The position numbers were made by a program, and so were the translations under genes. Source: Chaetoderma sp. LZ-2023a (lineage: Eukaryota; Mollusca; Caudofoveata; Chaetodermatida; Chaetodermatidae). From it: 64,000 bases of DNA. The notes below the pieces were generated by a model. The model saw only the letters and a list, made by a program, of their open reading frames with translations, ran no database searches and was not told where the DNA came from. The stretch lies in the NCBI GenBank assembly GCA_034401795.1, contig CM067372.1:17015924-17079923 (forward strand). Direction: 5' to 3'. Positions 1-63,018 of the stretch are shown here, piece by piece; position 1 is the stretch's first letter, and the number at the start of each line of letters is the position of its first letter.

Positions 1-2194
1 GTACTCGTTCTGACCTCATGCTAACAGTAGTCCTATGACCTGTACTCGTTCTGACCCTCATGACAGCAGTGGTACTATTACCTGTACTCGTTCCGACCCT
101 CACGATAACAGTAGTACTATTACCTGTACTCGTTCTGACCCTCATAATAACAGTAATACTATTACCTGTACTCGTTCTGACCCTCATGACAGCAGTAGTA
201 CTATTACCTGTACTCGTTCTGACCCTCATGATAACAGTAGTACTATTACCTGTACTCGTTCTGACCCTCATGATAGCAGTAGTACTATTACCTTTACTCG
301 TTCTGACCCTTATGACAGCAGTAGTACTATTACCTGTACTCATTCTGACCCTTATTACAGCAGTAGTACTATTACCTTTACTCGTTCTGACTCTTATGAC
401 AGCAGTAGTACTATTACCTGTACTCGTTCTGACCCTTATGACAGCAGTAGTACTATTACCTGTACTCATTATGACCCTCATGATAACAGTAGTACTATTA
501 CCTGTACTCATTCTGACCCTCATGATAACAGTAGTACTATTACCGTTACTCGTTCTGACCCTTATGACAGCAGTAGTACTATTACCTGTACTCGTTCTGA
601 CCCTCATGATAACAGTAGTACTATTACCGTTACTCGTTCTGACCCTTATGACAGCAGTAGTACCATTACCTGTACTCGTTCTGACCCTCATGATAGCAGT
701 AGTACTATTACCTGTACTCGTTCTGACCCTCATGATAACAGTAGTACTATTACCTGTACTCGTTCTGACCTCAGGCTAACAGTAGTACTATTACCTGTAC
801 TCGTTCTGACCCTCATGATAGCCGTAGTACTATTACCTGTACTCGTTCTGACCCTCATGATAGCAGTAGTACTATTACCTGTACTCGTTCTGACACTCAC
901 GATAACAGTAGTACTTTTACCTGTACTCGTTCTGACCCTCATGATAACAGTAGTACTATTACATGTACTCATTCTGACCCTCATGACAGCAGTAGTACTA
1001 CTACCTATACTCGTTCTGACCCTCATGATAACAGTAGTACTATTACCTGTACTCGTTCTGACCCTCATGATAGCAGTAGTACTATTACCTTTACTCGTTC
1101 TGACCCTTATGACAGCAGTACTACTATTACCTGTACTCATTCTGACCCTTATTACAGCAGTAGTACTATTACCTGTACTCATTCTGACCCTCATGATAAC
1201 AGTAGTACTATTACCTGTACTCATTCTGACCGTCATGATAACAGTAGTACTATTACCGTTACTCGTTCTGACCCTCATGATAACAGTAGTACTATTACCT
1301 GTACTCGTTCTGACCCTCATGATAGCAGTAGTACTATTACCTGTACTCGTTCTGACCCTTATGACAGCAGTAGTACTATTACCTGTACTCGTTCTGACCC
1401 TCATAATAACAGTAGTACTATTACCTGTACTCGTTGTGACCCTCATGATTACAGTAGTACTATTACCTGTACTCGTTCTGACTCTCGTGACAGCAGTATA
1501 CTCGTTCTGACTCTCGTGACAGCAGTAGTACCTCTGACCCTCATGACAGCAGTAGTACTATTACCTGTACTCGTTCTGACCCTCATGACAGCAGTAGTAC
1601 TATTACCTGTACTCGTTCTGACCCTCATGATAACAGTAGTACTATTACCTGTACTCATTCTGACCCTCATGATAACAGTAGTACTATTACCTGTACTCGT
1701 TCTGACCCTCATGATAACAGTAGTACTATTACCTGTACTCATTCTGACCCTCATGATAACAGTAGTACTATTACCTTTACTCGTTCTGACCCTTATGACA
1801 GCAGTAGTACTATTACCTGTACTCATTCTGACCCTTATGACAGCAGTAGTACTATTACCTGTACTCATTCTGACCCTCATGATAACAGTAGTACTATTAC
1901 CTGTACTCATTCTGACCCTCATGACAGCAGCAGTACTATTAGCTGTACTCGTTCTGACCCTCATGATAACAGTAGTACTTATACCTGTACTCGTTCTGAC
2001 CCTCATGATAGCAGTAGTACTATTACCTGTACTCGTTCTGACCCTCATGATAACAGTAGTACTATTACCTGTACCTGTTCTGACCCTAATGATAACAGTA
2101 GTACTATTACCTGTATTCGTTCTGACCCTCATGATAACAGTAGTACTATTACCTGTACTCATTCTGACCCTCATGATAACAGTGGTACTATTAC
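1..2194 (-). repeat. 42-bp minisatellite built on the w14 donor junction (about 52 copies)
   Basis: The tandem array has a 42-bp unit and runs off the left edge. On the minus strand each unit contains the last exon bases of w14 (ATCATGAGGGTCAGAACG, then AGTACAG), its donor GTAATAG and about ten more intron bases. Because 42 is divisible by 3, the exon frame stays open through runs of units as repeats of [14 protein letters not shown] (14 residues). It is unbroken from the exon to about 1449 and again from 1446 to 730. Units differ by a few substitutions; some have AACG|GTAATAG as the junction. Short irregular units lie near 1485-1545. The long open frames on the plus strand are by-products of the periodicity. 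Confidence 0.95.
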
Positions 2195-2291
2195 CTGTAC
2201 TCGTTCTGACCCTCATGATAGCATCAAAGGCAACTGGTCTCTCAATGTTCTGTTTTAAATCTGTCATGAAGCGGTCACCATCCAGGTCAGC
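2195..2291 (-). CDS. Sec24CD: Sec24CD exon w14 (start of beta-sandwich)
   Basis: This exon has 97 nt to the first donor, with acceptor ACTTCTTGTAG|GCTGAC. It reads [20 protein letters not shown] followed by [12 protein letters not shown], then one base of a Gly codon. [12 protein letters not shown] is invariant in the C/D class. The 3' edge is ambiguous. The last 25 bases and the donor (AACGAGTACAG|GTAATAG) recur every 42 bases down to position 1, so the spliceosome faces about 50 equivalent donors. Using a more distal one would add multiples of 14 residues in frame. The following exon is outside the window. Confidence 0.93.
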
Positions 2292-2558: not shown

Positions 2559-5500
2559 GGAATGGGAATGAGTGAGTGAGAGAGATGAAAGATTATGATG
2601 GCGGAATTTAATAATTACTAACAATGTATCGTTTCAATGATTTTTTTATGTGACCTTTTCCACAGGCGTTGTGCCCTAAAATTGACCTCTACTTCATTCC
2701 ATGCAATAAGTTATTTTCCTGCTACCCTAGCGTATTCTTGCAAATTGTGTGTGTAGATTTTGTTTTGCGCGCGTGTGGTATTTGTGGATGTTTTCGGTTT
2801 TTATGATAATGAGTTGGGTAAGATATTGTGATGGAAGTCACATACCATGGTATACAGCTGCATTCTGCCAATATCTGTCAGCTTTAATAAATTCTCTTTT
2901 TTAAAGAGATTTTGGTGTACTTTGTTGTATGTAAATAATTTGATGCTTCTCTTTTCTAATCCAGCCAACTTGCCGAGTTTTTGTGTGTGTGTGTTTGTCC
3001 AGATTGCATTGCAATATGTTACCAAAATAAAACTGTAACCGTTTGTTAGTCATGCGTGTGTGCATGCATGCCTTTGTGAGTATGTGTGTGTGTGCTTCAT
3101 ATATGTATATGATGATGTACATAGCTCTATGTGCGAGCGTACATGCATGCGTACATGCATATATGTCTGTACACACGCCCGTATGTTTCTGTGTGCATGT
3201 TTGTGTGCTATGGGCATACACGTGTGTAATATCTACCTGGAAGTAGCTGTATTTATACATGTTTCCAGAGGTGAATCTGCATACGTCACTTATTGATGCC
3301 ACATCGATGTACGAGTTTGGAAAGAGAAATAGGTCAACGCTACATCCAGCTGCGACACAATCATGTCCAAGTTTGGTGTAAAACGGGATATTGGGGCTCA
3401 GTAATGTCTGTAAACACAAGATACAGGATATGAGGACTGCAAGAGCACACGATACAGAATGAGGGCTCAGTAATGTCTGCAAGAACACAAGCCACAGAAT
3501 GAGGGCGCAGTAATGTCTGCAAGAACACAAGATATGAGAGTTCAGTAATGGCTACAAGAACACAAGATATGAGAGCTCAGTAATGCTACAAGAACACAAG
3601 ATATGAGGGCTCAGTAATGTCTGCAAGACACAAGATTCAGGATATGAAGGCTCAGTAACGTCTACAAGAAAAAGATACAAGATGAGGGCTCAGTAATGGC
3701 TACAAGAACACATGATATGAGGGCTAAGAAATGTCTACAAGAACACATGATATGAGGGCTCAGTAATGTCTACAAGAACACAAGATATAACATGTATAAG
3801 GGCTCAGCTATGTCTACAAGAACACATGATATGAGGGCTCAGTAATGTCTACAATAACACAAGATATAACATGTATAAGGGCTCAGCTATGTCTACAAGA
3901 ACACATGATATGAGGGCTCAGTAATGTCTACAATAACACAAGATATAACATGTATAAGGGCTCAGCTATGTCTACAAGAACACAAGATATGAGGGCTCAG
4001 GAATGTCTACAAGAACACAAGATATAACATGTATAAGGGCTCAGTTGTCTACAAGAGCACAGGATATGAGGGCTCAGTTATGTCTACAAGAGAACAAGAT
4101 ATGAGGGCTCAGTTATGTCTACAAGAGCACAAGATATGAGGGCTTAGTTGTCTACAAGAACACAAGATAAACAGCTAGAGTACACCTGATAAATATGTAG
4201 TCATCATGTTTAATAAACAAAAAACAAAAACATGTTAGTTAGTACAAATTTGAATACACAGCATGAATTATGACGAACATGTAATGTAACTATCAGAGAA
4301 GAATGTAAATGCACAGGATGGAACGATGAAGATTTTTAACATTAGACACATCTTTGGGTGGTGTACAATAATCTTGTTAAGTTTCGAACAATTTTCCCTC
4401 AAACTGTGGAAATTGCAGCGACAAGGTTTTCGGGACATACTGATTGGCGGATCTACGGATCAATGGGATGGACCGATGAATAAATGTTTAACATTAGGCA
4501 CATCTTTGGGTGGTGTACAATCTTCCTGTCAAGTTTCAAACAAATCTCTCAAACTGTAGGAGTTGCAGCAACAAGATTTTCGGGACGTACTCTTGGCAGG
4601 AGTTACAAATGGATAGGATAGACCGATGAGGATTTTTAACATTAGGCACATCTTTAGGTGGTGTACAATCTTATTGCCAAGTTTCAAACAATTCTCTCAA
4701 AACCTTTAAAACCTGAAATCTCAGCATCTCAATTGGAAAGCAAATATTCCAGAGTTAGTTGTTGAATATTTTGAAACTAATGACTTAGGCAGGAACATAA
4801 GTCAGCTGCTCAACAGCTCCCACTCAAATTAGTTTCAAAATATTCAACATATTTCATATATATTAAATTAAGACCTTATTGTCTCTAGTCTGTAGACTAG
4901 ATAGAATTAACTGATGAAGACTAACTGCAAACATGTTCATAAGTGATATTGAAGTAAGATGTGGCTAATATTTGTAATATGTGGCTAACAAAAATTATAT
5001 TTGGTTAATCGATTGGCTAGAAAATTGCAAAAGCCAGATCTGTCCCTGTACCACTATATATATACACCTGTGCAAAAGTTAAGCACCACCCTATTTTTAC
5101 GCACATGCGAGGGTATATTCATGTGCTATGAAGAAAGCAATAGGATAAACATTTATGTACCCATCCATCTTAGTGCAAGAGGTAATAATGCAACTAGAGG
5201 AATGCTGATTATGATGGTGGGGAAACACTGTATGTTTTTGTTTGAACTTGAAAACGAGGCCTGAATATGGTTACGTTGACACAACTGACAACTGTTGCCC
5301 TACAGTTGACACACGTGGCTAGATTGTCATTAATGGTGTCTGAAAACGAAGTTTAACATCTGTGCACGAGTTTGAGACTGTCATTATTAATACCGGGTAT
5401 ATCCACCTTGTGCCTGGATGACGGCCTGGACACGACGTCTCATGCTGGTCACCAACCGACTGATACGCCATTGTGGTATTCGTTGCCATTCAAGATGGAG

Positions 5501-8500
5501 TGCGTCTGTTAATTCCTGTAGGTTCTGCACAGGAGGATCCCTCCTTCTCACCATGTTTCCCAGAATGTCCCAGATATGCTCAATAGGGTTCATGTCAGGG
5601 CTCCTTGCTGGCCATGGTAGGGTTTCTATGGCATTCTGGCGGAGGTATTCATGCACAGCTCTAGCACGATGTGGTCGGGCGTTGTCATCCATGAATATAG
5701 GGTGGGTTCCAGGTGCATGATTTACAAAATGAGGGACCACAACTCTATCCAGTATGGAATCTTGATATCTTTGTCCATTTAGTGTTCCAGGTACAGTCAA
5801 CAGATCCAGCTTACAATCAAATGAGATGCACCCCCATATCATAACGGAACCTCCACCAAATGGAACTTCCTCCATGATGTTACGTTGGTCGTACGCCGTG
5901 CGTCTGGACCTCCATACACGAGTTCGACCATCTGTGGCATGAAGCAGGAACCGACTTTCATCGGACCAGTGTACCCGTCTCCAGGATCTCATGTTCCAGT
6001 GTCTTCTTTCGTTGCACCACCTCAGACGCTCCTCTTTGTGGTGTGCAGTGAGGAGAGGACGTCTGACAGGTCTCCTAGCTTTCATGCCAGCAGCATACAG
6101 TCTCCTTTTGACGGTAGACATTGACACTCTATTGCGCGTTTCCCATTGCTGGCTGAGCACTCTGCTGTTGGTGAATGGAGATCTCCTAACAAGGCGTACT
6201 AGGGCTCGATCATCACGGGCAGTAGTCTTCTTCGGTCTTCCAGATCTAGGCCTGTCCTTCACCTCGTTAGTTTGCCCATGTTTTGCAATCAAACGACTGA
6301 TTACAGTATGGTTAATGTTCAGCTGTCTGCCAATCTCTCTGCATGACATACCAGTGGTATGCATGCCTATGATTTGCCATTTCACACGATCACTTAACCT
6401 TCGTCTTGCCATAGCGGTTCACAATCAAGAGCTAATTCTCTCTGTACAAATAAACCACGGTCATGAACACAAAATTCCTAATCTTGTCGCCTAAATCTGT
6501 ATGTAATGTTCTACACCTCAAACTGGACTTTTACATAACTGAACACGTGTGCTGTTTCCCGCCACGCACGGACATCAAGCGGCGTGAAGTCATGCATGCA
6601 TGTGCATTTCGTACTTGGAATTATGTCAGCTAACGCGGGGACAAAAAGTATGGCAGCCTAGTTGTACCATCATGTTTCTACGTTCTATTGTTTTTGCTGG
6701 TGCTTAACTTTTGCACAGGTGTATATATATATACCTTCTCTTTGTCAGTTCCCAGCAGATTCCTATCATCACGGTTTTTCAGCTTGCCAGGTGCCTTAGC
6801 TGTAGGGAGAGATGAGTGGAAGATGAACAGTTTTCCCGGGCATTCGGCTGCCTTCATCGCATCAAGACCAGCCTGTATAACGGGACCAAGTACAATTTCT
6901 GTCTCACGAGACTCGGCAAACATGGCAGGTATCTGAGCCAGCAGGCTGTAATGAAGACAACAAAAAGTTAAAAGCAGTCCAATTGTGGACAAGGTCACCT
7001 TGTTGCCGAGATGAATACATGCAAAGTGATATCTGGGAAGAGGCCCAATGATACTGAGGTGTATACATGCATATTCAGAGGAGTGCCCATGTTATTGAGG
7101 TGAATACCTGGATGAGCCGCCTTGTTGCTGGGGTGAATACATGTAAAGATATATATATATATTATTTGGGATGAGGCCCAATGTTACCGAGGTGGATACA
7201 TGCATAGAGGTAAGTATGAATGCTTACCTGTCAATGACGGCCTCAGATTCAGACATTTTGACTAGAAAGCCATCGAGTAGCGGCACAAACATATCTTCGA
7301 GATCAGAAACAACAAGCATCTGAGGCTGTGCTAATGAACCCTGAATCATAAGTACCATAATAAAGGTCAAGATCAAAAGTAAAGTAAGAGTATAAAGTGT
7401 GGGCTGAAGTGATGGTCGTCTTAGTATAGGTCCACCCCCTTCAGACCAAACTTGGACACATGGTTATATATTTCAAACGGATGCACCACTGTCCCATTGA
7501 AGTCATGAGGTCAATGGTTACTGTGACCTTGGTATAAAACTGTTTTGTGGGTTAGGTTTTTGGTTTAACGTAACATTTAACATTGTCATATCTCAGGATT
7601 GGTTCACACTATTTGAATTAAACTATTGGTCAGAGGGATGATGATGATGATGATGACGATGATGATGATAACAAGAGGCCCAAGGGCCTGTGGCGCTCAC
7701 CTGGACCATTAGCATTTGAACCATTTGCATTTAAATAGATATGATGGATCATTTCCGGAAAATACAAGATGGCCACCCAAAAAAATGACCAATTAAAATT
7801 CTGAATAGATGTCTAAAGTCTACCATGATAGGGTCGTTCTAGACAAATTTGGTTGAAATATGTCAAGCGACTAAGGAAAAGCAACGTATTGACAATTTCT
7901 GGTAAATTTGTCATAAAATCTATGATTTTATCCCAAAAATTTCTCAATCAAAATTCCGAATAGAATTTCTAGAGCCTACCACCATAGAATCCATCTACTG
8001 AAATTTGTTTGAAATATGTCAAGCAGCTAAGGAGGCGGCGTAGCAATTTGACAATTTCCAGTAAATTTTTCATATCTAAGATTTTCACCCAAAAAACTCA
8101 TCAATTAAAATTCTGAAAAGATATTCTAGTGCCTACCACCATAGAATGCATCTAGTCAAATTTGGTTGAAATATGTCAAGCTGCTAAGGAGGAGTAGCAT
8201 TTTGACCATTTCCGGTAGATTTTTCATAAAATCTCAGATTTTCACCCAAAAAATTGATCATTCAAAATTCTGAAAAGACGATCTAGAGCCTATCACAATA
8301 GAATCCTTTCAGTCCAATTTGGTTGAAATCTGTCAAAATGGTAAGAAGTAGAGATTTGACAATTTCCAGTAAATTTTAATAAAATCTAGGATTTTCACCC
8401 AAAATATTTACGCAACAAAATTCTAAATGGAAGTTCTAGAGCCTATGAACATAGGATTCTTTCAGCCCAATTTGGTTCAAATTGGTCAAAATAGTAAGAA

Positions 8501-14500: not shown

Positions 14501-17500
14501 GTACCCATCCATCTTAGTGCAAGAGGTAATAATGCAACTAGAGGAATGCTGATTATGATGGTGGGGAAACACTATGTTTTTGTTTGAACTTGAAAACGAG
14601 GCCTGAATATGGTTACGTTGACACAACTGACAACTATTGCCCTACAGTTGACACACGTGGCTAGATTGTCATTAATGGTGTCTGAAAACAAAGTTTAACA
14701 TCTGTGCACGAGTTTGAGACTGTCATTATTAATACCGGGTATATCCACCTTGTGCCTGGATGACGGCCTGGACACGACGTCTTATGCTGGTCACCAACCG
14801 ACTGATACGCCATTGTGGTATTCGTTGCCATTCAAGATGGAGTGCGTCTGTTAATTCCTGTAGGGTCTGCACAGGAGGATCCCTCCTTCTCACCATGTTT
14901 CCCAGATATGCTCAATAGGGTTCATGTTAGGGCTCCTTGCTGGCCATGGTAGGGTTTCGATGGCATTCTGGCGGAGGTATTCATGCACAGCTCTAGCACG
15001 ATGTGGTCGGGCGTTGTCATCCATGAATATAGGGTGGGTTCCAGGTGCATGATTTACAAAATGAGGGACCACAACTCTATCCAGTATGGAATCTTGATAT
15101 CTTTGTCCATTTAGTGTTCCAGGTACAGTCAACAGATCCAGCTTACAATCAAATGAGATGCACCCCCATATCATAATGGAACCTCCACCAAATGGAACTT
15201 CTTCCATGATGTTACGTTGGTCGTACGCCGTGCGTCTGGACCTCCATACACGAGTTCGACCATCTGTGGCATGAAGCAGGAACCGACTTTCATCGGACCA
15301 GTGTACCCGTCTCCAGGATCTCATGTTCCAGTGTCTTCTTTCGTTGCACCACCTCAGACGCTCCTCTTTGTGGTGTGCAGTGAGGAGAGGACGTCTGACA
15401 GGTCTCCTAGCTTTCATGCCAGCAGCATACAGTCTCCTTTTGACGGTAGACATTGACACTCTATTGCGCGTTTCCCATTGCTGGCTGAGCACTCTGCTGT
15501 TGGTGAATGGAGATCTCCTAACAAGGCGTACTAGGGCTCGATCATCACGGGCAGTAGTCTTCTTCGGTCTTCCAGATCTAGGCCTGTCCTTCACCTCGTT
15601 AGTTTGCCCATGTTTTGCAATCAAACGACTGATTACAGTATGGTTAATGTTCAGCTGTCTGCCAATCTCTCTGCATGACATACCAGTGGTATGCATGCCT
15701 ATGATTTGCCATTTCACACGATCACTTAACCTTCGTCTTGCCATAGCGGTTCACAATCAAGAGCTAATTCTCTCTGTACAAATAAACCACGGTCATGAAC
15801 ACAAAATTCCTAATCTTGTCGCCTAAATCTGTATGTACTGTTCTACACCTCAAACTGGACTTTTACATAACTGAACACGTGTGCTGTTTCCCGCCACGCA
15901 CGGACATCAAGCATGCATGTGCATTTCGTACTTGGAATTATGTCAGCTAACGCGGGGACAAAAAGTATGGCAGCCTAGTTGTACCATCATGTTTCTACGT
16001 TCTATTGTTTTTGCTGGTGCTTAACTTTTGCACAGGTGTATATAATATAACAGATCAATGCAATTTGAGACAAGATCAGTATCCCTTTCACATTTGGCTA
16101 ATAAAATCCCAAAATATGTAAATTTCCTAGCTAAGAGATTTAATATTTGACTACGAAAATCCCAAAATAGACTAATTTACTGGCCAATAATTTCAGATGT
16201 GTAGGTCAGTCCCTGTGTTGTCTACCATCTCATTACACGCAACCACAGATTTTAACATTTTTAGTTGCAATCGAAACTAGTTATAGTATATAAGTCTATA
16301 TGTTTGTCAGTCAAATGTTTTACATTTCTTACAAAGCTGCCTAGGTCACAACTACAGTGTTGTGTGTGTGTGTGATTCAGAAATTCTAGAATACTGCTCA
16401 GAAATAGTTTGTTCATGTTTCGAAAACAAAAACAGAATCTTGTTAGTTAGCAAGAAATATTCTGTGGAATATTTTGCACAGTACATATTACTAGCCATGT
16501 CGCTAGCATGGAGTGCTGGGAGTGCTGGGTGTTCTTGTGCTCAAGACATTTTTAACAAGCATTCTGTAAATATTGCTTTGCAATACATGTCCCCTACCTG
16601 GTGATATAAATCTTTAGAGATTGACAGTCAAATACTCCATTAAAAATTGACAGAAGCAGCTGAAGCTCGAACATGATCTGTAACTTCTCATAACATGGCA
16701 ATAAACCAAGTAAGTCTCAGTTATATATGGTGAAGGAGAAGGAGTCTTGAAAGCTGATATGTTTGTAGTTCATAAATCGAAAGGGGACATAAATCCATCA
16801 AAGAATGACGCATACGTCTGAAAACCCACTTGGACTGCAATTTCTCAAAATAAAGTAATGTACCAATTCTCAGTTGAATAACTTGAAAGACTGCGAGAAA
16901 AAGGGCTGAAAACTAATATTTTTCGTATTTCATAGGTCGAAAGGGGGCATAACCTCATAAAAAATGTACACATATGCCTGAAACTCCAACTTGGTCTGTA
17001 ACTTCTCATACCAAAGCAATGTCGCAATTCTCAGTATAATATCTTGAAAGACTGCGAAAAAAAGTGCGGAAAACTAACATTTTTCGTATTTCATACGTCG
17101 AAAGGGGGCATAACTCCATGAAAAATTGACGAAAATATCTGAACCTCGAACTTGCTATGTAACACCTTATACTAAAGCGATGCACCGATCTTCGCTTAAA
17201 TATCTCGCAGGAGTGCGAAAAAAGGTGTGGAAAGCTAATATTTTTCGTATTTCATGTCGAAAGGGGGCATACCCCATGAAAAGTTGACAAAAATGTCTGA
17301 AACTCGAACTTCCTCTGTAACTCCTTATACTAAAGCGATGCACCGATTTTCGCTTAAATATCTTGAATGTGTGCGAAAAAAAGTGCGGAAAGCTAATATT
17401 TTTCATATTTCTTAAGTCGAAAGGGGGGCATAACTCCATCAAAAATGTACGCATACGCCTGAAACTCGAACTTGGTCTGTAACTTCTTATACCAAAGCAA

Positions 17501-20500
17501 TGTAGCAATTCTCTGCTTAATCTCTTGAAAGACTGCGGGAAAACTAATATTTTTCGTATTTCATAAGTCGAAAGGGGGCATAACTCCATGAAAAATTGAC
17601 GAAAATGTCTGAAACTCTAACTTGTTCTGTAACTCCTTATACTAAAGCGATGCACTGTTGTTTTCTTAACAGCAACATTGTTTTCAAAATAAGTTGGTTC
17701 GACTGGAAAGGGGTCCCGTAGAAGTATACTAATGCTGGGCTCAAAAGTTAAAACGCAACAGCAACATCTTTCAGCAACATTATTTTCAAAGTAAACACTT
17801 GTGACTTCACGGTGGTTTGCTTTGGAAACATTCTATGTAATTTCAAAGCTGTACTTAGTAGATCCATGGCATCAAGATACACCTCATGTATTGACTAAAT
17901 TGAGTCATGTTAAATGAATTTGAGTGCGACTTTTGCGAGTACCAGAAAAAAAAAACCCTCAAATTAGTCAACAGAAGGGATCTTACATTGCAAAGAATAT
18001 ATTTCCCTACATATAAAGTATTGAAATGGCTACATAAATTGCTGTAAATAATTTATGCATAAATTATATGCATCTGAGAAAATATTGATGAATTTACTTA
18101 AACCTATAATGGTCCAGACAGCTGAAACTCGCCTCTGAAGTTTGGAAATTTGCCACTGAAATGTCTGGCCAGATAATTGAGCCAATGATTGTAGCGCTAC
18201 ATTTTTAATGAGATGGACAGCATCCACGTCGAGCACTAGTTTTTCCACATATCACACACCATGTGTGGCAGTGTCACAAAATTATGATTTATTAAGATAG
18301 TATACCCCCTTGATAAATCAAATGTCTACCGAAAAACTCTTAACATTCTTCTAATTCTTGAAAAGGAGATCAGATAAGTCCTTGATGAGTTAAATGTCCA
18401 CTGAAAAACTTACATTTTCCTAGTTCTTGGTGCAAAATAAGTCCAAACAACGTAAAAATATGGAAAAAATGTGAAAATCATTTAAATTATGACGGCGACT
18501 AGATGTAATGATTGTATAGATCAAATCTGTAAAGTTTTATTAAGATCGGATAAGTCCCTGATAAATTAATGTACCTTGAAAAGATTTAACATTTATCTGC
18601 ACGCCACACACCAGCAGGGTTTGATCTCTAGTTATGTTCGCTAGTCCGAGACTACCTGATTCTCTTACAGACTACTTATAGTCTGTTGGTCACAAGTCCG
18701 GTGGACTAGTACAAAATTTCTGTCAAAATTATCCATTAGACTCGCAAAAACAAAATATTCCATGACATTGAGAAAACTAATGCATAAATTTCTTGCAAAC
18801 ACGCAAGCTTGCACGCTTAAAATTACAGCAGAAGCTATATATGTTAAAATCTATGATAGCAGTGCCTGTTCATAGTCGGCAACCATTCTGGAGCATTTGC
18901 ATTTAATTCACGCTCAGATTTTTTCGGTTTCTATATGATAGGACATAACATATCCGAAGACAACTGAATTGCGAAATCGCTTAATGTGTGCAAAAGTGCT
19001 GACATCGTAAAACGAATTACTTGGTCAATTCAGCCTAGAGGGATACAAGAATTGCTCATTGCCTCGTAGCTGAGTTGCATGGCTTATGAATTGATCGGTA
19101 ATTATGGAGAATTCATAAAATTGATTTTGACCGATACTTACATATCTGGCATATGTATATGGCTTGGAAACTACATATAATATAGTATACCAATTACATC
19201 AACGTGAATATCTGTACACTCTACATTTAATAATTAAACTGTATACTGATGACATATTTTGCCGAGGAACATATACACCCCCAACGTTCCCGACGAATTG
19301 AAACTTCTGGTTCATTTTGTCATAGAGGGGTATATGAGAATTCCTATTATCCAGGAACATTGTCGTGTCGAATTTAGTAATGTCTATACAGTATCAACCG
19401 ATTTTGGGACAAATGTTATGATAAAATGCATTAAATTATCACTAAGCTACTATTAGAACATCGTGAGCACGCTTTCTAAACAATACAATTCGATATTTAA
19501 TCATTTTACAGCTTGAATTGATGACTTTTTAAAGACAAAATGGCGGTAGAATAGCAATAGTCAGAACTGAGAAAATTATGCCATTACACATACTCCAATT
19601 CAGTGACTGACCGTCTAAGAGTCTGTTTTAGATAAAATATCACAGCGCATAGTAGCTACACGGCGCATGACACCGTGTAGCCTGGTTCCCAAATAAATGC
19701 CCCAGGGAACCAATCTACCGCAATGGTGCAGTTCTGAATGCATTAACTTCCTGGTTAGTGTGCTATAAAAATATGTGCACGTGTGTCAAGATATTGTCAT
19801 GACTTGTAAAATAGTAACACAATTTGGACAAGTAATATGCTAATTCTTCTTAGATGCACCAAATTTTTTATCATACCGCATATTATTTAAGATGTGCAAT
19901 GCGTTAATCCTGTATTTTGCTCAGAAATTTAAAGAAAAAAATCTTATTTAACATGACTGCGCATATACATATATATATTCAAACGCGTGATTTGCTGATT
20001 ACTGGAACTACACAACAAATTACATGTGGTACCTGGTTCCCTGCACAATATAATTTTATAGCGCTAAAAGAATTGATAGCGGTTCCAAACTAATTATGCA
20101 ATATCAAATCAAGCGATAAGAACGTAATTATAAACATATTCATTTCATGTTCGTGTCCTCAGTTCGCGATTTCTATGTATTTTATGTGATGAAACTTTGA
20201 TATTGGGTGCTTGCTAGATGTCTTACACACGAGGCATCAAAAAGTGAATGTGGACGAATTTAGATTTGGCGATTCCTTTTATTTGGCTGGATGTGTTTCT
20301 TAATTTCATAATGACCCTTCAGCTCTAAAGTGTTAAGGAAGCTGTTAAAGAATGTCCTACCTTACAATAATCTTTGGTACCGACAAACTCATATGAGCCG
20401 AGACACAGCTCCGCTCTCTGAGACCAATCAACCCGTCTCCCTGTGTGATCTAGATGGTTGAAGTATTCATTTGGCACTGTGGAAGAAAACAGATGCTTGA

Positions 20501-23500
20501 ATTAGTCACTTGGCACTGCCTAAGAAATGTAACTATGATTTACTCAAGAGTAATGGACCTTTCCATTTTTTAGCTATGCCCCGCCCACCACTAGCTAAGC
20601 TCCACCCACACCTCGCCGTGTTTGGATTGATCGATCCCCGAATGCCCTAGCTATCAATTTCCTGAAAACTATACAGGGAAGCTGTTGAATATTTTGTAAC
20701 TAATTAGACTGGGTGCTGTTGCTGCCATAGGCAGCAACAGCGCCCAGTCAAATTAGTTTCGAAATATTCAACAGAATATTTATTAAATAGTAAAAGCAAA
20801 CAATTTGTACAAGAGCCCATAGACCGTCTTCAAATATGTGTTCGTGACGTACTTATCGACGTCATTCATTATGACATCATTGTACACACCACGCAGTTCA
20901 TTATGACGTCATATGATGGGTGGGTACTCTGGAAAGGACCATTAGAACCTCATACTATACCTGCTTGCTCATATTAGCTCATAACAGTCATATAGCTTGC
21001 TTAAAATGACAACCCTGCATGATATGCCAATTAAATGTTCACAATTTAATCTTAAAAACTTAGCACCATAACCATTGGATTTCCAGTCTCTCAATTTCAA
21101 GCAAGATAGTTAAATATTTTTAAACTAATTTAACTATAACCTATTGCGATCATATGCAACAACAGCATCCATTCATACTGAGTTGCAGGTACAAAATACT
21201 GTATTTACCCAAAGGTAGTCCACTAGTGTGTCTAGTCCACACCACTAAATTTGACCCCAAATGGCCTAAAAATGTGTTTTCATTTATACACCTGTGCAAA
21301 AGTTAAGCACCAGCAAAAACAATAGAACGTAGAAACATGATGGTACAACTAGGCTGCCATACTTTTTGTCCCCGCGTTAGCTGACATAATTCCAAGTACG
21401 AAATGCACATGCATGCATGTCTTCACGCCGCTTGATGTCCGTGCGTGGCGGGAAACAGCACACGTGTTCAGTTATGTAAAAGTACAGTTTGAGGTGTAGA
21501 ACATTACATACAGATTTAGGCGACAAGATTAGGAATTTTGTGTTCATGACCGTGGTTTATTTGTACAGAGAGAATTAGCTCTTGATTGTGAACCACTATG
21601 GCAAGACGAAGGTTAAGTGATCGTGTGAAATGGCAAATCATAGGCATGCATATCACTGGTATGTCATGCAGAGAGATTGGCAGACAGCTGAACATTAACC
21701 GTACTGTAATCAGTCGTTTGATTGCAAAACATGGGAAAACTAACGAGGTGAAGGACAGGCCTAGATCTGGAAGACCGAAGAAGACTACTGCCCGTGATGA
21801 TCGAGCCCTAGTACGCCTTGTTAGGAGATCTCCATTCACCAACAGCAGAGTGCTCAGCCAGCAATGGGAAACGCGCAATAGAGTGTCAATGTCTACCGTC
21901 AAAAGGAGACTGTATGCTGCTGGCATGAAAGCTAGGAGACCTGTCAGACGTCCTCTCCTCACTGCACACCACAAAGAGGAGCGTCTGAGGTGGTGCAACG
22001 AAAGAAGACACTGGAACATGAGATCCTGGAGACGGGTACACTGGTCCGATGAAAGTCGGTTCCTGCTTCATGCCACAGATGGTCGAACTCGTGTATGGAG
22101 GTCCAGACGCACGGCGTACGACCAACGTAACATCATGGAAGAAGTTCCATTTGGTGGAGGTTCCGTTATGATATGGGGGTGCATCTCATTTGATTGTAAG
22201 CTGGATGTGTTGACTGTACCTGGAACACTAAATGGACAAAGATATCAAGATTCCATACTGGATAGAGCTGTGGTCCCTCATTTTGTAAATCATGCACCTG
22301 GAACCCACCCTATATTCATGGATGACAACGCCCGACCACATCGTGCTAGAGCTGTGCATGAATACCTCCTCCAGAATGCCATCGAAACCCTACCATGGCC
22401 AGCAAGGAGCCCTGACATGAACCCTATTGAGCATATCTGGGACATTCTGGGAAACATGGTGAGAAGGAGGGATCCTCCTGTGCAGAACCTACAGGAATTA
22501 ACAGACGCACTCCATCTTGAATGGCAACGAATACCACAATGGCGTATCAGTCGGTTGGTGACCAGCATGAGACGTCGTGTCCAGGCCGTCATCCAGGCAC
22601 AAGGTGGATATACCCGGTATTAATAATGACAGTCTCAAACTCGTGCACAGATGTTAAACTTCGTTTTCAGACACCATTAATGACAATCTAGCCACGTGTG
22701 TCAACTGTAGGGCAATAGTTGTCAGTTGTGTCAACGTAACCATATTCAGGCCTCGTTTTCAAGTTCAAACAAAAACATACAGTGTTTCCCCACCATCATA
22801 ATCAGCATTCCTCTAGTTGCATTATTACCTCTTGCACTAAGATGGATGGGTACATAAATGTTTATGCTATTGCTTTCTTCATAGCGCATGAATATACCCT
22901 CGCATGTGCGTAAAAATAGGGTGGTGCTTAACTTTTGCACAGGTGTATATAAGCCGCTGTGAGTGAGAGACTTAGGAACAAAAACCAGTAACAAAGCAAC
23001 TATTGTGCTTCGCATATTTTTTTCTTATACAATCCAGTTGTTAAATTGTTAATATATATTTAATTTTTTTACTTACGGGTATATCATTTGCTTAGTCTTT
23101 TATCAACTATTTCATATTAAATCTTATAAATTACTCAAGCCAGTCATTCCAGTGGTAAAAAATAGTCTTCTCTTGGCCTGCAAATGGGCATTTGCCAAGA
23201 GCACTGCAGACACCAGTTGTGGCCGGCTTGACCATTAAAGGGATAATATCATCCTTATTGTATGCTAGCAACGATCAGTAGACGAATATCTGGCTTAATT
23301 TATGTAATATTGGCATTTGGTTTCTAAACATAGTGAGAAAATGGATCATATATGACTGGTTAAAATGTGAGGAAACATAACGGAAAAAAATGTTAGGCTA
23401 ATCTATGGGTCTATACGGTATTGAACATAGTATTCATTATAGCATAGAGAATTCGTCATTTCTGCTCATTAAAGGTTAACGGTCAGCGATGGGTTTTGAG

Positions 23501-26500: not shown

Positions 26501-29500
26501 CCATCCTCTGTGTCAACACCCATGACAATTCTATGACCTGAACTAAGACCTTTAATCATCTCCGCAAATAAATTAATAACTTTAATAAGTGTTATGGTTG
26601 AATAGTTTGCTACTAATTTGCCTGTACACTGATCCGGCTTAGATCCAACACTGTTACTGGTCCAAACAAATTATTTTTGTAAGATTCGCAAGACATATAC
26701 CCTCATGATGCTCACTTTTGGCTACTTTAAATAAAAGACTTCTATAACTTTCCATGACCTTTGATATGTTTGAGAAACCGTGAATTGGCTTTTCTAGCAT
26801 TTACAAGTACTACAGGTAAACATTCAATTTTCATGACCTATACAATCTCTGTATTGTATATCACTCAGGGGTTGAAACAAGAAATTGTTCTCCATGTACA
26901 AAGACAATCTACAAGTAAATAGATTGATATTCTCGCATAATAGCCAGAAAAGTGCATGTATCTTGTGCACCCGGGATTGCAGAGGTTACTTCACTGGCTA
27001 TGTTTTCATCTGCATAGTGCATGTAAAAAGGCAATATTTAATGGCCATGATATAGCTTACCATCAGTTGCAGTATCAGCTCGCTATAACACACACAGCTT
27101 ACTATCAGTTGCAGTATTACTCTGATATAAAGCACACAGCTTACCATCTGTTGCAGCATTACTCTGCTAACAAAGACAGCTTACCATCCATTGCAGCATT
27201 ACTCTGTATAACACACACAGCTTACCATCAGTTGCAGCATTACTCTGTATAACACACACAGCTTACCATCCGTTGCAGTATTACTCTGATAACACATACA
27301 GTTTACCATCCGTTGCAGCATTACTCTGCTAACAAACACAGCTTACCATCCGTTGCAGCATTACTCTGTATAACACACACAGCTTACCATCAGTTTCAGA
27401 ATTACTCTGCTAACAAACACAGCTTACCATCAGCTGCAGTATTACTCTGATAACACACACAGCTTACCATCAGTTGCAGTATTACTCTGCTAACACACAC
27501 AGCTTACCATCAGTTGCAGTATTACTCTGCTAACAAACACACCTTACCATCAGTTGCAGTTTTACTCTGATAACAAACACAGCTTACCATCAGTTGCAGT
27601 ATCACCCCGATAGCACACACAGCTTACCATCAGTTGCAGTATTACTCTGATAACAAACACACCTTACCATCAGTTGCAGTATCACCCAGATAACACACAC
27701 AGCTTACCATCAGTTGCAGTATCACCCTGATAACACACACAGCTTACCATCAGTTGCAGTATCACCCCGATAACACACACATCTTACCATCAGTTGTAGT
27801 ATCACCCCGCTATAAACACACAGCTTACTATCAGTTGCAGTATTACTCTGATATAACACACACAGCTTACCATCAGTTACAGTATTACTCTGATATAAAT
27901 CACACAGCTTACCATCAGTTGCAGTATTACTCTGATAACACACACACCTTACTATCAGTTGCAGTATTACTCTGATATAAAACACACAGCTTACCATCAG
28001 TTGTAGTATTACTCTGATAACACACACAGCTTACCATCAATTGCAGTATTACTCTGATAACACACACAGCTTACCATCAGTTGCAGCACTGCAGAACGCA
28101 CACTGGAATCTCTTTCCTCCGTCTATAAACTGCATGAAGGAATTCATGTAAGCCTTACAGCGTGTACATCTTACAGGCCCGATCTCACCCAGGTCCACCA
28201 CAGGAGGTGCTTGCTGAATAACAATAACAACAACACATATATCTTACAGGGCCGATCTCACCCAGGTCCACCACGGGAGGTGCAGGTGTTTGCTGATTAA
28301 CAACCTGTATCGCTCACCTGGAATTATTGGCCACTGGCATAATATAACAAAACGAGATGACCATTGGACAAATTTACCAATCAAATTTCTGTGAAGATGG
28401 TTTAAAATTGGCTCAGTCATTAATAAGTAGTCTTTTTATGATTTTCTAAGGAATTTGCAGAAAATACAAGATGTCTCCCAAAAATGCTAAATTCTGATTG
28501 ATTCATGGTGAACATGTGTTTTTGACATATCATATTTCGGCCCGATTCAGCGGTTCTGGCGGTCGCTTTCACGAAAATTAGGTCATCCAAGATGGCCACC
28601 GAACCATTTGGCAAATCAAGTTCCCTCAAACAAACATTGTTCAGCTCTTGCCATATACCATATTTCATGAGGTTTGCATCGATCCCCCAAGCAGTTTGGT
28701 TGATTTTTTAAGACGTTGCTAAGTCAGCCAAATCTAAGAAGGTCACCGGCTAAATCAGCCGATCATCTTCCTTTGAACAAACTTGTACCACTATGCCATA
28801 AGGATGCTTCCTGTTAAACATAGCTGAAATCGGCACAGTGGTTCTCGAGAAGACATTTTAAATTTCCCATTGCTTTAGTATGGGAGCCTTTGGCGGGAAA
28901 ATGATCAAAGCTACCCATCAAACCGTTTATGCGACAGCTTCGACAATGGCAAATTTGAAATCAGAATACCAAAAAAAACATATAAAACCAATTTCGGCCT
29001 TTAAAAATCCATCAAATAAAAAAAATCTGATATGCCAGACAAACATGCTAGATTTTGATACCCCACAGTGGCTATGTTTTTACGAATCACCTTCCTTTGA
29101 AGAAACTTAAATGTCCATTATTCACTCGATCTCACCCAGGTTCACCACAGGTATTTGCTGAATAACAATAACAACAATTAGTGTTGTGAATCGGAAAAAG
29201 AAAATTTTCTGGAAAATTTACCAACATATTTTTCCAGAAAATTTTCGGTCACCTAAGGATGCAATTGCAAATTTTTATTTCCCTATTGCATTAATACCGG
29301 TGCTTTTGCTACTAATATAAGTAAATAGATTTAGATTTGTGTCATGTATTGCCATGGCTGAAATGGCTTGCGTCACGTTACACTATCACTATTGTTCAGA
29401 AATAACAAATTTCCAAACAATGCTGTTAAATATCTTGAACCCAATTTGTTTGAAAAAAGCTATCGTTGCTACAGGCAGTAATGGCTTGGCAGCAATGGCT

Positions 29501-32500
29501 TCCTAGCAAATTGTGTTCAAAATATTCAACCAGAAAGTTTTTGCACATCATTCAAAATTGAAGAAAATTTTAATTCTGTGTACTGTTACCTTATTTCTGG
29601 GTTCAACTGTACACCAGCTGCATGGAATCGTGAATGATGCAATATCGCATCAGCATAATATTGCATCATACACTGCATCATGCACATGCTGGTCTGGTGT
29701 AAATTCTTATTCATTGTTGTAAGTCAGTCAAGTGGTTACTGGTTATGCAATAACATTGTTTAAATTTTAGTGTATGTTAATTATTTAGTTTCTGCAAATT
29801 CCACTTTTTGCCAGTTAAGGCAGTTATCAGTTAAAGCTCCTAAACATGCCAAAAAGACTTGATATGAAAGCATGGAATCATTTCAACAAAGAAATTTCTG
29901 GAAAAAATAATTATATAGGAAAATGCAAATATTGTGATAAGACCTGGACCATAGGCATTTATCAACAAGATGGCCACCGAACCATTTATCCGACAGTTTC
30001 GAAAATTGCAAATTTGAGATCAGAATACCCAAAAACACATATAAAACCAATTTCAGCCTCAAAATCCATCAAATAAAAGTTAACTATGGACACCAAACAT
30101 GCTATGTTTTGATTGGCCCATGGTGTCCAGGTTTTTTTGAGGGATCAACTTCCCTTGAATAAACTTCAATGGCCCTTAGTCCCTAATCATACCTGCCAAA
30201 TTTCGGCCCGATCCCTTCCGCGGTTCTGGAGACAGTCATTTTCGCTATAACTAGGTCAACCAAGATGGCCGCCAAACCATTTTACCAATCAAGTTCCCTT
30301 GAACAAACTTGGCTCAGCACTTGCCCTAATCCTTTTTCATGAGGTTTGCATCAATCCCCCAAGCGATTTCGGAGCAGAAGATTTTTAGACGTTTCTAAAA
30401 ATCGGCCAAAATCCAAGCGGACGATCGGCTTCGTTTGAACAAACTTGAATCTCTATACCCTAAGGATGCTTTCTGCGAAATAGAATTGAAATCGGACTAG
30501 TTGTTCTCGAGAAGAAAACATTTTAAATTTCCCATTGCTTTAGTACGGCAAGATGGCCGCCATACCGTTTATTCGACAGTTTCGAAAATTGTAAATTTGT
30601 GATCAGAATACCGCAAAACACAGACAAAACCAATTTCGGCCTCAAAATCGATCAAATAAAAAAATCCAATATGGCCGCCAAACACGCTATATTCGCTACA
30701 ACTAGGTCAACCAAGATGGCCGCCGAACCATTTGACCAATCAAGTTCCCTTGAACAAACTTGGTTCAGCTCTTGCCCTAGATCATATTTCATGAGATTTG
30801 CATCAATCCCCTAAGAGGTTTTGGAGAAGATTTTTAAAGACGTTTCCTAAAATCGGCCTGAATCCAAGATGGCTACCAGCCAAATTGGCCAATCAGGTTC
30901 ATTTGAACAAACTTGGATGCCGATGCCCTAAGGATGCTTCGTGCCAAATATAATTGAAATTGGCCCCAAGGTTCTTGAGAAGAAGCCGTTTAAAGGAAAA
31001 GTTGAACGACAACAGATGACGGACAGACGACGGATGGTTGCCACGGCATAAGCTCACTTGGTCTTTCAGGCCAGGTGAGCTAGAAATGTGAGCACAGAGA
31101 AATCAAGCATTAAAGTAGCTTGCCTTCCACTTATTTCAATGTAATTTTTGTTAGTTATCTGTTTGTTTAATAATCACATATTTGACGAAATTCTGCTTGC
31201 TATTGCTGGTATATACCCTAAGAAATAACATATCCAAAATTTCAAATTTTATCAAAAAATGCTGCGGAACCGAAAATAGACCACTTCATGAATTGCATCA
31301 TGTATATATATATATATATCTGTGAATAAAAACATACACGAATATTTATTTGTTTTAATACATACCTCTTGTGCATCTGGCTTGGCAAATGGTGATATAG
31401 TTAAGACAAATGGTATATGGCTGGTTTTCAACATGTCTGAATTCACAGGTACGTTATACATCGTGGAGCGTATGTAGCGTGGACTGCAAACACCTATGCA
31501 AGAACAAACACACACATTATACGCGTGGACTGCAAACACCTATGCAAGAACAAACATACACATTATACATCGTGCATCATATGTAGCGTGGACTGCACAC
31601 ACACACCTAAGCGAGAACAAACATACACATTATACACGTGGACTGCAAACACCTATGCGAGAACAAATACACATTATACATCCTGCAGTGTATGTAGCGT
31701 GGACTGCACACACCTAAGTGAGAACAAACATACACATTATACGCGTGGACTGCAAAGACCTATGCGAGAACAAACACACACATTATACATTATGCAGTGT
31801 ATGTAGCGTGGACTGCATACACCTATGCAAGAACAAACATACACATTATAAATTACAATCACTATATACAGCGTATAACGTACTGTGTTAATGACATGAT
31901 CCTGATACTTGGTATATCATCTGATATGATTTCAAAGGTAAGCATGCATAATCTGCTCAAATCAAATTGGGGTATTATATATGAATCCTGTTAAGTCTGT
32001 CAATATCACTATCATAGCCACATTGGTTAGTTATCTTCCATTGCTAGCGTATGTAGGTAAGGTGAGTCTATCCAAGCCTACAGCTTATTGTCATTCAGAT
32101 CAAAGTGTATCTATAATTGCCTAGAGCTTACTGTCATTCAGATCAAAGTGTATCTATAATAACCTAAAGCTTATTGTCATTTAGATCAAAGTGTTTTAAG
32201 ATAGCCCAGAGCTTGTTGTCATTCAGATCAAAGTGTATCCTTAATAGCATAGAGCTTATTGTCATTCAGATCAAAGTGTATCTATAATATCCTAGAGCTT
32301 ATTGTCATTCAGATCAAAGTGTATCTATATTATCCTAGAGCTCATTGTCATTCAAATCACAGAGTATCCATGATAGTCTAGAGCTTATCACCATGCAGAT
32401 CACAGTGTATCTATAATAGCCTAGAACTTATTGTCATTCAGATCAAAGTGTATCTATAATAGCCTAGAGCGTATTGTCATTCTGATCAAAGTGTATCTAT

Positions 32501-57784: not shown

Positions 57785-57887
57785 CTGAAATATACACATT
57801 TAACATTATGATCATGAAAAAGTAGCATATTATCTACCATAAAACTTATTCTGTTGAATATCTTGAAATATTTGAATGAAATTCATT

Positions 57888-60800: not shown

Positions 60801-63018
60801 GAGGTTAGCATTGAAACAGGCTGGAGGATTGATCAGAAGAGGTTAACATTGAAGCAGGCAGGAGGATTGATCAGAAGGGGTTAACATTGAAGCAGGCAAG
60901 AGGATTGATCAGAAGGGGTTAACATTGAAGCAGGCTGGAAGGATTGATCAGAAGAGGTTAACATTGAAGCAGGCTGGAGGATTGATCAGAAGAGGTTAAC
61001 ATTGAAGCAGGCTGGAGGATTGATCAGAAGAGGTTAACATTGAAGCAGGCTGGAGGATTGATCAGAAGGGGTTAGTATTGAAACAGGCTGAAGGGTTGAT
61101 CAGTAGCGGTTAGCACTAAAGCAGGCAGGAGGATTGATCAGAGGGGTTAACATAGAAGTAGGCTGGAGGATTGATCAGAAGAGGTTAACATTGAAGCAGG
61201 CTGGAGGATTGATCAGAAGGGGTTAACATTGAAGCAGGCTGGAGTATTGATCAGAAGATGTTAACATGGAAGCAGGCTGGAAGGATTGATCAGAACAGGT
61301 TAACATTAAAGCAGGCTGGAGGATTGATCAGAAGGGGTTAACATTGAAGCAGGCTGAAGGATTGATCAGAACAGGTTAACATTAAAGCAGGCTGGAGGAT
61401 TGATCAGAAGAGGTTAACATTGAAACAGGCCGGAGGATTGATCAGAAGAGGTTAACATTGAAACAGGCCGGAGGATTGATCAGAAGAGGTTAACATAGAA
61501 GCAGGCTGGAGGATTGATCAGAAGGGGTTAACATTGAAGCAGGCTGGAAGGATTGATCAGAAGAGGTTAACATTGAAGCAGGCTGGAGGATTGATCAGAA
61601 GAGGTTAGCATTGAAACAGGCTGGAGGATTGATCAGAAGAGGTTAACATTGAAGCAGGCAGGAGGATTGATCAGAAGGGGTTAACATTGAAGCAGGCAGG
61701 AGGATTGATCAGAAGGGGTTAACATTGAAGCAGGCTGGAAGGATTGATCAGATGAGGTTAACATTGAAGCAGGCTGGAGGATTGATCAGAAGAGGTTAAC
61801 ATTGAAGCAGGCTGGAGGATTGATCAGATGGGGTTAACATTGAAGCAGGCAGGAGGATTGATCAGAAGGGGTTAACATTGAAGCAGGCAGGAGGATTGAT
61901 CACAAGAGGTTAACATTGAAGCAGGCAGGAGGGATTGATCAGAAGGGGTTAGCATTGAAGCAGGCTGGAGGATTGATCAGAAGAGGTTAACATTAAAGCA
62001 GGCTGGAGGATTGATCAGATGTTAACATTGAAGCAGGCTGGAGGATTGATCAGGAGGTTAACATAGCAAGCTGGAGGAGTGATCAGAAGAGGTTAACATA
62101 GAAGCAGGCAGGAAGGATTGATCAGAAGGGGTTAACATTGAAACAGGCTGGAGGATTGATCAGAAGAGGTTAACATTGAAGCAGGCAGGAAGGATTGATC
62201 AGAAGGGGTTAACATTAAAGCAGGCTGGAGGATTGATCAGAAGAGGTTAACACTGAAGCAGGCTGGAGGATTGATCAGAAGAGGTTAACATTGAAGCAGG
62301 CTGGAGGATTGATCAGAAGAGGTTAACATTGAAGCAGGCTGGAGGATTGATCAGAAGAGGTTAACATTGAAGCAGGCTGGAGGATTGATCAGAAGAGGTT
62401 AACATTGAAGCAGGCTGGAGGATTGATCAGAAGGGGTTAACATTAAAGCAGGCTGGAGGATTGATCAGAAGAGGTTAACATTGATGCAGGCTGGAGGATT
62501 GATCAGAAGGGGTTAACATTGAAGCAGGCTCGAGGATTGATCAGAAGGGGTTAGCATTGAAGAAGGCTGGAGGATTGATCAGAAGGGGTTAGTATTGAAA
62601 CAGGCTGGAAGGACTGATCAGAAGATGTTAACATTGAAGCAGGCTGGAGGATTGATCAGAAGGGGTTAGTATTGAAACAGGCCGAAGGGTTGATCAGTAG
62701 GGATTAACATTGAAGCAGGCTGGAGGATTGATCAGATGAGGTTAACATTGAAGCAGGCTGGAGGATTGATCAGAAGAGGCTAACATTGATGCAGGCTGGA
62801 GGATTGATCAGAAGGGGTTAACATTGAAGCAGGCTGGAGGATTGATCAGAACAGGTTAGCATTGAAGAAGGCTGGAGGATTGATCAGAAGGGGTTAGTAT
62901 TGAAACAGGCTGGAAGGACTGATCAGAAGATGTTAACATTGAAGCAGGCTGGAGGATTGATCAGAAGGGGTTAGTATTGAAACAGGCCGAAGGATTGATC
63001 AGTAGGGGTTAGCACTAA
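57888..63018. repeat. 38-bp minisatellite, 5.1 kb (about 130 copies)
   Basis: The unit is GAAGCAGGCTGGAGGATTGA then TCAGAAGAGGTTAACATT. Variants are AGGGG/AGAGG, GGCTGG/GGCAGG/GGCCGG and AAGGATTG. A distinctive run (GGTTAGTATTGAAACAGGCT, GAAGGGTTGATCAGTAGCGG, CACTAAAGCAGGCAGG) recurs at about 58981, 59781, 60121 and 61071, showing higher-order duplication of blocks of several hundred bp to about 1 kb. It lies about 100 bp upstream of exon w1. Confidence 0.95.

What the first reader, a model, noticed from the sequence alone, without database searches (positions are those of the whole stretch)
1..2291. Frame-neutral minisatellite of about 50 copies of an exon's own 5' splice site
Each 42-bp unit carries the last 25 bases of Sec24 exon w14 and its donor (AACGAGTACAG|GTAATAG). 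The unit length is 14 codons and the exon frame continues without a stop for at least 17 units, so any of these donors would give an in-frame protein with n x 14 extra residues. The insertion would fall right after the conserved RVRTSTG of the beta-sandwich. Either the first donor is strongly preferred, or the gene makes a length ladder of Sec24 isoforms. The array could also act as a decoy for the U1 particle.
Basis: partly seen in the sequence, partly recalled or inferred. Interest (0 to 1): 0.88.

Follow-up and report, generated by a model that had tools for sequence, protein, structure and literature searches.

The report
Splice-site minisatellites in a Sec24C gene
In one gene of what is probably a mollusc, short stretches of DNA that straddle exon edges have been copied in tandem up to 50 times, giving the splicing machinery dozens of near-identical sites to choose from, of which probably only the one touching the exon is used.

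Summary
The exon at w2291-2195 (minus strand) of a Sec24C gene runs straight into a 42-bp array (w1-2223; 52 parsed units, its far end in a 2,500-N block). Each unit is the exon's last 28 nt (not 25) plus 14 nt of intron; 51 of 52 keep GT. The exon frame stays open for 743 nt, 17.7 units.

The same gene has a 40-bp, ~25-copy array on the zinc-finger exon's donor, a 35-bp, ~20-copy array and a 46/109-bp array on two acceptors, and two 2-copy acceptor duplications. Outside the 42-bp array nearly every outer site tested shifts frame or meets a stop, and units show no coding constraint. Published minigenes with two identical strong donors under exon definition used only the inner one. Best reading: inert junction-duplication minisatellites whose innermost site is spliced, not a selected isoform ladder.

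Precedent: human IFI6. Junction arrays exceed array-edge chance in this gene (4 of 28 junctions tested; 1.3% of random positions), but by plain repeat cover they do not, the locus is a minisatellite hotspot (28.5% versus about 3.4%), and 60 control myosin exons gave 1 array. No RNA data were available.

The parts
2195..2291 (-). Sec24C exon (97 nt) whose donor is copied by the 42-bp array
1..2223 (-). 42-bp donor-spanning minisatellite, 52 units parsed; unit = last 28 exon nt + 14 intron nt (GTAATAGTACTACT); runs up to an N block outside the window
2193..2194 (-). first (innermost) donor GT, the one most likely used
   Evidence: sequence; usage inferred
28075..28213 (-). zf-Sec23/Sec24 exon ([16 protein letters not shown]...FCSAATD)
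   Evidence: the domain name is recalled
27054..28086 (-). 40-bp donor-spanning minisatellite, about 25 copies; unit = 12 exon nt CTGCAACTGATG + about 28 intron nt GTAAGCTGTGTG...
28214..28292 (-). extra copy, 79 nt upstream, of the zf exon's acceptor and exon start (CAG|CAAACACCTGCACCTCCCGTGGTGGACCTGGG...): two-copy acceptor duplication
3237..3407 (-). Sec24C exon [14 protein letters not shown]...
3408..4173 (-). 35-bp acceptor-spanning minisatellite, about 20 units (TCTTGTGTTCTTGTAG|ACATTACTGAGCCCTCATA); TRF span 3459-4173
31366..31493 (-). Sec24C exon [15 protein letters not shown]...
31454..31850 (-). 46/109-bp acceptor-spanning array; repeats GCATAG|GTGTTTGCAGTCCACGC of the exon start
20361..20476 (-). 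Sec24C exon [11 protein letters not shown]...
20452..20527 (-). two-copy 39-bp duplication of this exon's acceptor and start; the extra copy carries a stop (VPSD*FKHL)

Best explanation
Each array began as a short tandem duplication crossing an exon-intron junction and then expanded into the intron, as minisatellites do. The copy touching the exon kept its function, so the expansion was nearly neutral. Because the exons are short and the flanking introns long, the spliceosome pairs the two sites closest across the exon and uses the innermost donor (or acceptor); the outer copies, up to about 50, are inert decoys. The open, 14-codon frame of the 42-bp array is a by-product and would give at most minor longer isoforms. 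Shown: anatomy, copying of the junction, recurrence in the gene, the frame consequences. Inferred: the duplication history and the site actually spliced.
For: Repeat copies contain exon and intron sequence at six junctions of one gene. Productive sites: 1 of 45 GTAA sites in the 40-bp array (at least 18 of the 45 are GAGTAA, not copies of the donor; 19 are identical to the real donor, itself included), 3 of 21 acceptors in the 35-bp array, 1 of 8 ATAG/TTAG sites in the 46/109-bp array, only the inner of the two homologous acceptors in the 39-bp duplication, and 14 of 43 in the 42-bp array. The gene's exons match Gigantopelta Sec24C colinearly and the composite is about 72% identical to several molluscs' Sec24C, so productive splicing must occur. 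Flanking introns are about 945 and 5,200 nt. In minigenes with two identical strong donors under exon definition only the upstream one was used (PMC9225289). No coding constraint on units; no masking RNA structure (z -1.23 and +1.89). In 107 of 120 Sec24C proteins the motif is followed at once by conserved residues ([IVL]R[PA]..), with no insertion.
Against: No RNA was seen, so site use is not measured. The donor lacks a G at +5 (CAG|GTAATA); with weak identical donors the published larger exons were mostly skipped, though smaller ones kept the upstream preference. Human IFI6 does use outer donors (PMC4526556). By position alone, junctions are not in repeats more often than random points of this locus: at score 18, 5 of 24 junctions against 25.4% of 2,900 random positions with an array on the given side; 47% of 143 random positions had a copy within 1.5 kb.
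Confidence: 0.76

Rival explanations
1. Isoform ladder: several of the first 16 donors of the 42-bp array are used, giving Sec24C proteins with n x 14 extra residues ([14 protein letters not shown]) at the start of the beta-sandwich, as the IFI6 minisatellite does.
For: 14 of 43 AG|GTAA sites, the first included, are in frame and open; 37 of 43, the first included, have the same -3..+6 sequence; IFI6 precedent (PMC4526556 introduction).
Against: No constraint on unit codons; no insertion at this site in the 107 Sec24C proteins with a motif match; exon-definition minigenes with strong identical donors use the upstream one; the other duplications tested in the gene cannot make a ladder, apart from two open extensions in the 35-bp array.
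Confidence: 0.13
2. The array works as a U1 sink or guard: many donors in the intron recruit U1 and protect the long intron from premature polyadenylation or slow splicing.
For: 51 of 52 units keep GT.
Against: GT is no more conserved than many other unit positions; acceptor arrays in the same gene would need another explanation.
Confidence: 0.04
3. Recursive or within-array splicing: every AG|GT joint acts as acceptor and donor, or the array is becoming a new intron or exon as in intron gain by tandem duplication.
For: AG|GT at 46 of 51 joints; a boundary-crossing duplication made a new intron in a potato gene (PMC4974935 abstract).
Against: No pyrimidine tract before the CAG in the 42-bp unit (sequence); the unit is 42 nt, very short for an intron.
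Confidence: 0.03
4. Assembly artefact or chance resemblance.
For: The array abuts an N block of exactly 2,500 bases.
Against: 33 distinct unit types among 52 units and exact exon sequence in the units.
Confidence: 0.02

Closest known systems
[quoted passage not shown]
   Same: A minisatellite whose repeat units carry splice donors; two downstream units serve as donors (three mRNA species).
   Different: Here the units are 42 and 40 bp, arrays reach about 25 and more than 50 copies, acceptors are involved too, and use of outer sites is not shown. The 1995 paper was not held; known from its title in reference lists and from the introduction of PMC4526556.
Variable internal tandem repeats at exon-intron boundaries of human segmental-duplication genes (PMC2812944)
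   Same: Minisatellites at exon-intron boundaries that can alter splicing.
   Different: There on average 30-bp units repeated 4 times, with transcript evidence; here large arrays at several junctions of one gene, no transcripts. Passages seen.
[quoted passage not shown]
   Same: Tandem duplication that crosses an intron-exon boundary and copies splice signals.
   Different: Two copies and a detected new intron there; many copies and no known new intron here. Abstract seen.
Cross-exon proximity rule under exon definition (Carranza et al. 2022, PMC9225289)
   Same: Predicts use of the innermost of identical sites in exons with long flanking introns.
   Different: Tested there with two competing donors in transfected minigenes; here about 7 to 50 sites in a natural gene. 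Abstract and passages seen.

Membership tests
Splice-donor minisatellite (IFI6 type) | array unit contains the donor of the exon it abuts | tested here: met
   28 exon nt + donor in the 42-bp unit; 12 exon nt + donor in the 40-bp unit
Splice-donor minisatellite (IFI6 type) | several units used as donors in mRNA | not testable with these tools
   no RNA data
Splice-donor minisatellite (IFI6 type) | outer donors leave an open reading frame | tested here: inconclusive
   met for the 42-bp array (14 of 43 sites, first included); not met for the 40-bp array (1 of 45, the first)
Intron gain by tandem duplication | duplicated segment supplies AG and GT around a candidate intron | tested here: met
   AG|GT at 46 of 51 joints
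Intron gain by tandem duplication | a new intron is spliced from the duplicated region | not testable with these tools
   no RNA data; candidate 42-nt introns lack a pyrimidine tract
Exon-definition context | both flanking introns over 250 nt | tested here: met
   about 945 nt upstream, about 5.2 kb (2.5 kb of it N) downstream
Sec24C/D gene | exons colinear with Sec24C, including the Sec23/Sec24 trunk | tested here: met
   tblastn of Gigantopelta Sec24C, colinear exons; PF04811 matches in the window

The most novel reading that the evidence does not exclude
Splice junctions are preferred birthplaces of minisatellites in this genome, for example because transcription, R-loops or splice-signal sequence make the exon edge prone to tandem duplication. 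The resulting genes carry natural arrays of identical donors and acceptors in which distance to the exon alone decides the splice site.
Probability: 0.27. Interest if true: 0.68.

Novelty: new variant of a known kind. Interest (0 to 1): 0.5.

Why it matters
How the spliceosome picks one of several equal sites is usually tested with two sites on a plasmid. Here one gene offers 43 AG|GTAA donors in one array (37 with one and the same 9-mer), about 25 donors in another (19 identical), about 20 acceptors and about 7 acceptors, so one RNA-seq experiment would test the cross-exon proximity rule at extreme numbers. It also shows exon edges caught in tandem duplication, a proposed first step of intron gain and of change in exon length, and raises whether junctions are duplication hotspots.

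Tried and rejected
Rejected: chance or low-complexity origin (exact exon sequence in the units). A dispersed repeat as source: the array end of the query matched only within this array, although only the best candidates are scored there; the repeat further up the intron is the dispersed one. RNA structure hiding outer donors. Purifying selection on the ladder frame. Higher-order repeats in the array: no run of three or more exactly identical successive units recurs.

Led nowhere: no relatives' genomic DNA for a eukaryote, so age and array length in related species could not be studied. Paralogous Sec23/24 loci showed little minisatellite, 0 to 4%. SNF2 exons as a second control sample were listed but could not be fetched. 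A genome-wide count of regularly spaced CAGGTAAG did not complete, nor was the adaptin search. Paper searches; apart from IFI6 no other splice-site minisatellite of this size appeared in their listings, which cover open-licence papers only.

Left out of counts: 24 junctions were tested; four of the mapped ones were not (both ends of the exon near -8675, whose search strings did not match, the acceptor near -16672 and the donor near -19195). In one search, 4 of 6 further junctions were found and tested, none with an array; 2 strings did not match. In one search, 100 of 3,000 random positions were dropped for N. Of the 65 myosin matches I left out five before fetching: the two longest at the head of the list, two with five or more stops inside, and one in a 590-residue open frame. 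The codon count used the 49 gap-free units of 52. One search was a script that failed on a file name and was rerun.

Full report
Setting. The window is G000:C14:17015924-17079923 of a 2.44-Gb eukaryotic genome. The gene on the minus strand is Sec24C: a composite of its exons matched 2,480 proteins at E <= 0.001 among 7,992 scored, the best 120 listed; the most similar are molluscs (Lottia, Elysia, Gigantopelta, Mizuhopecten, about 72% identity). The top row by E-value is a sea cucumber protein at 59%. That the animal is a mollusc is an inference; no species was identified. tblastn of Gigantopelta Sec24C places colinear exons over the window and the next 20 kb, 47-79% identical for the exon-sized alignments in the window. 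PF04811 has further matches elsewhere, but of the three paralogous loci fetched only C14:65.6 Mb resembles Sec24C, at 41-48% identity, so this looks like the only Sec24C copy; contigs C1528 and C1529 were not fetched.

The flagged array. Exon w2291-2195 ends ...ACGAGTACAG|GTAATAG. From w2223 to the window edge lies one 42-bp array of 52.6 copies. Parsing gives 52 units with consensus GTAATAGTACTACT + GCTATCATGAGGGTCAGAACGAGTACAG, the second part being the last 28 nt of the exon. GT is kept in 51 of 52, GTAATAG in 45 of 52, AG|GT at 46 of 51 joints. The exon frame continues as (NSTT[A/V]IMRVRTSTG)n, with variants, for 743 nt beyond the first donor and is shifted by insertions at units 16-17; the last in-frame AG|GTAA donor is 630 nt past the first. 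Past the window the next 2,500 bases read N (an assembly gap or a withheld stretch; I cannot tell), then a (CTA/CTG)n tract, then the next exon with acceptor TTATTTCTCAG. So the array's length is a lower bound.

It is not alone. Following the gene's other arrays showed that several copy a junction. (i) w27054-28086, 40 bp, about 25 copies: CTGCAACTGATG|GTAAGCTGTGTG..., the donor of the zinc-finger exon. (ii) w3408-4173, about 35 bp, about 20 units...CTTGTGTTCTTGTAG|ACATTACTGAGCCCTCATA, the acceptor of exon w3407-3237. (iii) w31454-31850, 46/109 bp: GCATAG|GTGTTTGCAGTCCACGC, the acceptor of exon w31493-31366. (iv) w20452-20527, a two-copy 39-bp acceptor duplication. (v) 79 nt before the zinc-finger exon, a second copy of its acceptor and exon start. 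Of the 11 arrays whose flanks were printed, eight (47, 27, 43/45 at w32075, 45 at w51440, 33, 38, 154 and 344 bp) show no exon edge that I could recognise by eye; three are (i), (ii) and (iii).

Is that more than chance? Two answers, both to be told. By position, no: 25.4% of 2,900 random positions of this 84-kb stretch have a tandem copy on a given side within about 160 nt, against 5 of 24 junctions at score 18, and 47% of 143 random positions have a copy within 1.5 kb. The locus is saturated: minisatellites (period 10-200, at least 4 copies) fill 28.5% of the window but about 3.4% on average of 14 arbitrarily placed 10-kb stretches (mean computed from its rows). By array edges, yes: positions where an array lies on one side only make up 1.28% of random positions at score 22, against 4 of 24 junctions (binomial P 2.3e-4; 3.1e-3 for 3 of 23 with the flagged junction set aside). 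Four more junctions tested later had none: 4 of 28, P 4.3e-4, or 3 of 27, P 4.9e-3. The edge test is the fairer one for where arrays began, but the gene was chosen because of one such array. As an outside sample I read 60 myosin-head exons of the 65 matches (up to 120 junctions). The scan flagged 17 loci; the sequence of all 17 was then printed, and one is a real junction array: L072, acceptor TATTTCAG|CGTAATGGTTTT repeated as 26- and 48-bp units. The other 16 hold simple repeats or repeats that do not carry the exon edge. So the phenomenon exists in at least one other gene, at about 1 in 120 junctions. A second control (SNF2 exons) could not be fetched.

What the spliceosome must do. For each array I asked which sites would leave an open, in-frame mRNA. 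40-bp array: 45 GTAA sites, of which at least 18 are GAGTAA and not copies of the donor and 19 are ATG|GTAAGC like the real one (itself included); only the innermost is productive, because the first extra unit already brings a stop. 46/109-bp array: 8 ATAG/TTAG sites, one of them (368 nt out) not a copy; only the innermost is productive. 39-bp duplication: the outer copy carries a stop. 35-bp array: 21 acceptors, the innermost plus extensions of 69 and 144 nt. 42-bp array: 43 AG|GTAA sites, 37 with the 9-mer of the first (itself included), 14 productive (first included). The 79-nt duplication (v) was not in that call; 79 is not a multiple of three. Since the rest of the coding sequence is intact and conserved, the innermost sites must be used often. 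Carranza and colleagues tested this in small: minigenes with two identical donors and flanking introns of 365 nt used the upstream donor exclusively; with both donors weakened, the smaller exons kept that preference while the larger ones were preferentially skipped (PMC9225289, abstract and passages). Here the exon is 97 nt and the introns about 945 and 5,200 nt.

Against a ladder of isoforms: among the 49 gap-free units the distinct changes are 24 nonsynonymous and 5 synonymous (87 and 7 counting every occurrence), where random change would give about 72:27, so there is no sign of coding constraint. In 107 of 120 Sec24C proteins a motif match shows that the residues after RVRTSTG are of the conserved [IVL]R[PA] type with no insertion; 13 did not match the motif, of which 7 of 8 looked at have RVRTSQG followed by IRPVDF and one lacks the stretch, 5 not looked at. 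One protein, P0050, has the stretch twice, 419 residues apart, each followed by IRPTGF, which looks like a duplicated model rather than a ladder. The donors are not hidden by structure: z -1.23 for six units of the 42-bp array and +1.89 for about five units of the 40-bp array.

What is known. A minisatellite that supplies several donors is known from human IFI6 (Turri et al. 1995, title in reference lists; use of two downstream units described in the introduction of PMC4526556). Tandem repeats at exon-intron boundaries that change splicing are known in human duplicated genes (PMC2812944, passages), and a boundary-crossing tandem duplication made an intron in potato (PMC4974935, abstract). What I did not find in the listings is a gene with large arrays at several donors and acceptors.

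Verdict. Real, ordinary in kind, unusual in degree and clustering. The first donor is probably the one used; the array is a decoy field left by junction duplication. It is worth an RNA experiment because it turns splice-site choice among dozens of equal sites into a direct measurement.

Noticed in passing
L072 (G000:C6:59853497-59854310): Myosin-head gene with an acceptor-spanning minisatellite (TATTTCAG|CGTAATGGTTTT, 26 bp x about 8 plus 48-bp units), a second gene with the same phenomenon.
   Followed up: partly
L009:7501-10000: Exactly 2,500 N next to window base 1; another locus (L008:2173-2672) has exactly 500 N. Gap or withheld stretch, not distinguishable here.
   Followed up: no
window 1-64000: Minisatellite hotspot: 28.5% of the window against about 3.4% in 14 arbitrarily placed 10-kb stretches of the genome.
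   Followed up: partly
window 23750-26345: 27-bp x 96 array, 96% matches; in the part read (w23672-24000) two minus-strand frames are open as 9-residue repeats.
   Followed up: no
window 57884-63011: 38-bp x 135 array just upstream of a candidate N-terminal Sec24C exon (w57784).
   Followed up: no
window 38523-40517: 344-bp unit x 5.8 at 99% matches; contains a tRNA-like stretch, so perhaps a tandemly amplified SINE (recalled, not tested).
   Followed up: no
window 14893-15750 and 5390-6418: Two related open frames on the minus strand that look like Tc1/mariner-type transposases (recalled, no family search run).
   Followed up: no
window about 2334-2482: Stretch of the intron upstream of the flagged exon that recurs at many places in the genome (71 matches to the query in all, array units included).
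   Followed up: no
L010:3288-4008: 24-bp x 30 array with an open frame directly upstream of a later Sec24C exon; it does not obviously copy the junction.
   Followed up: no
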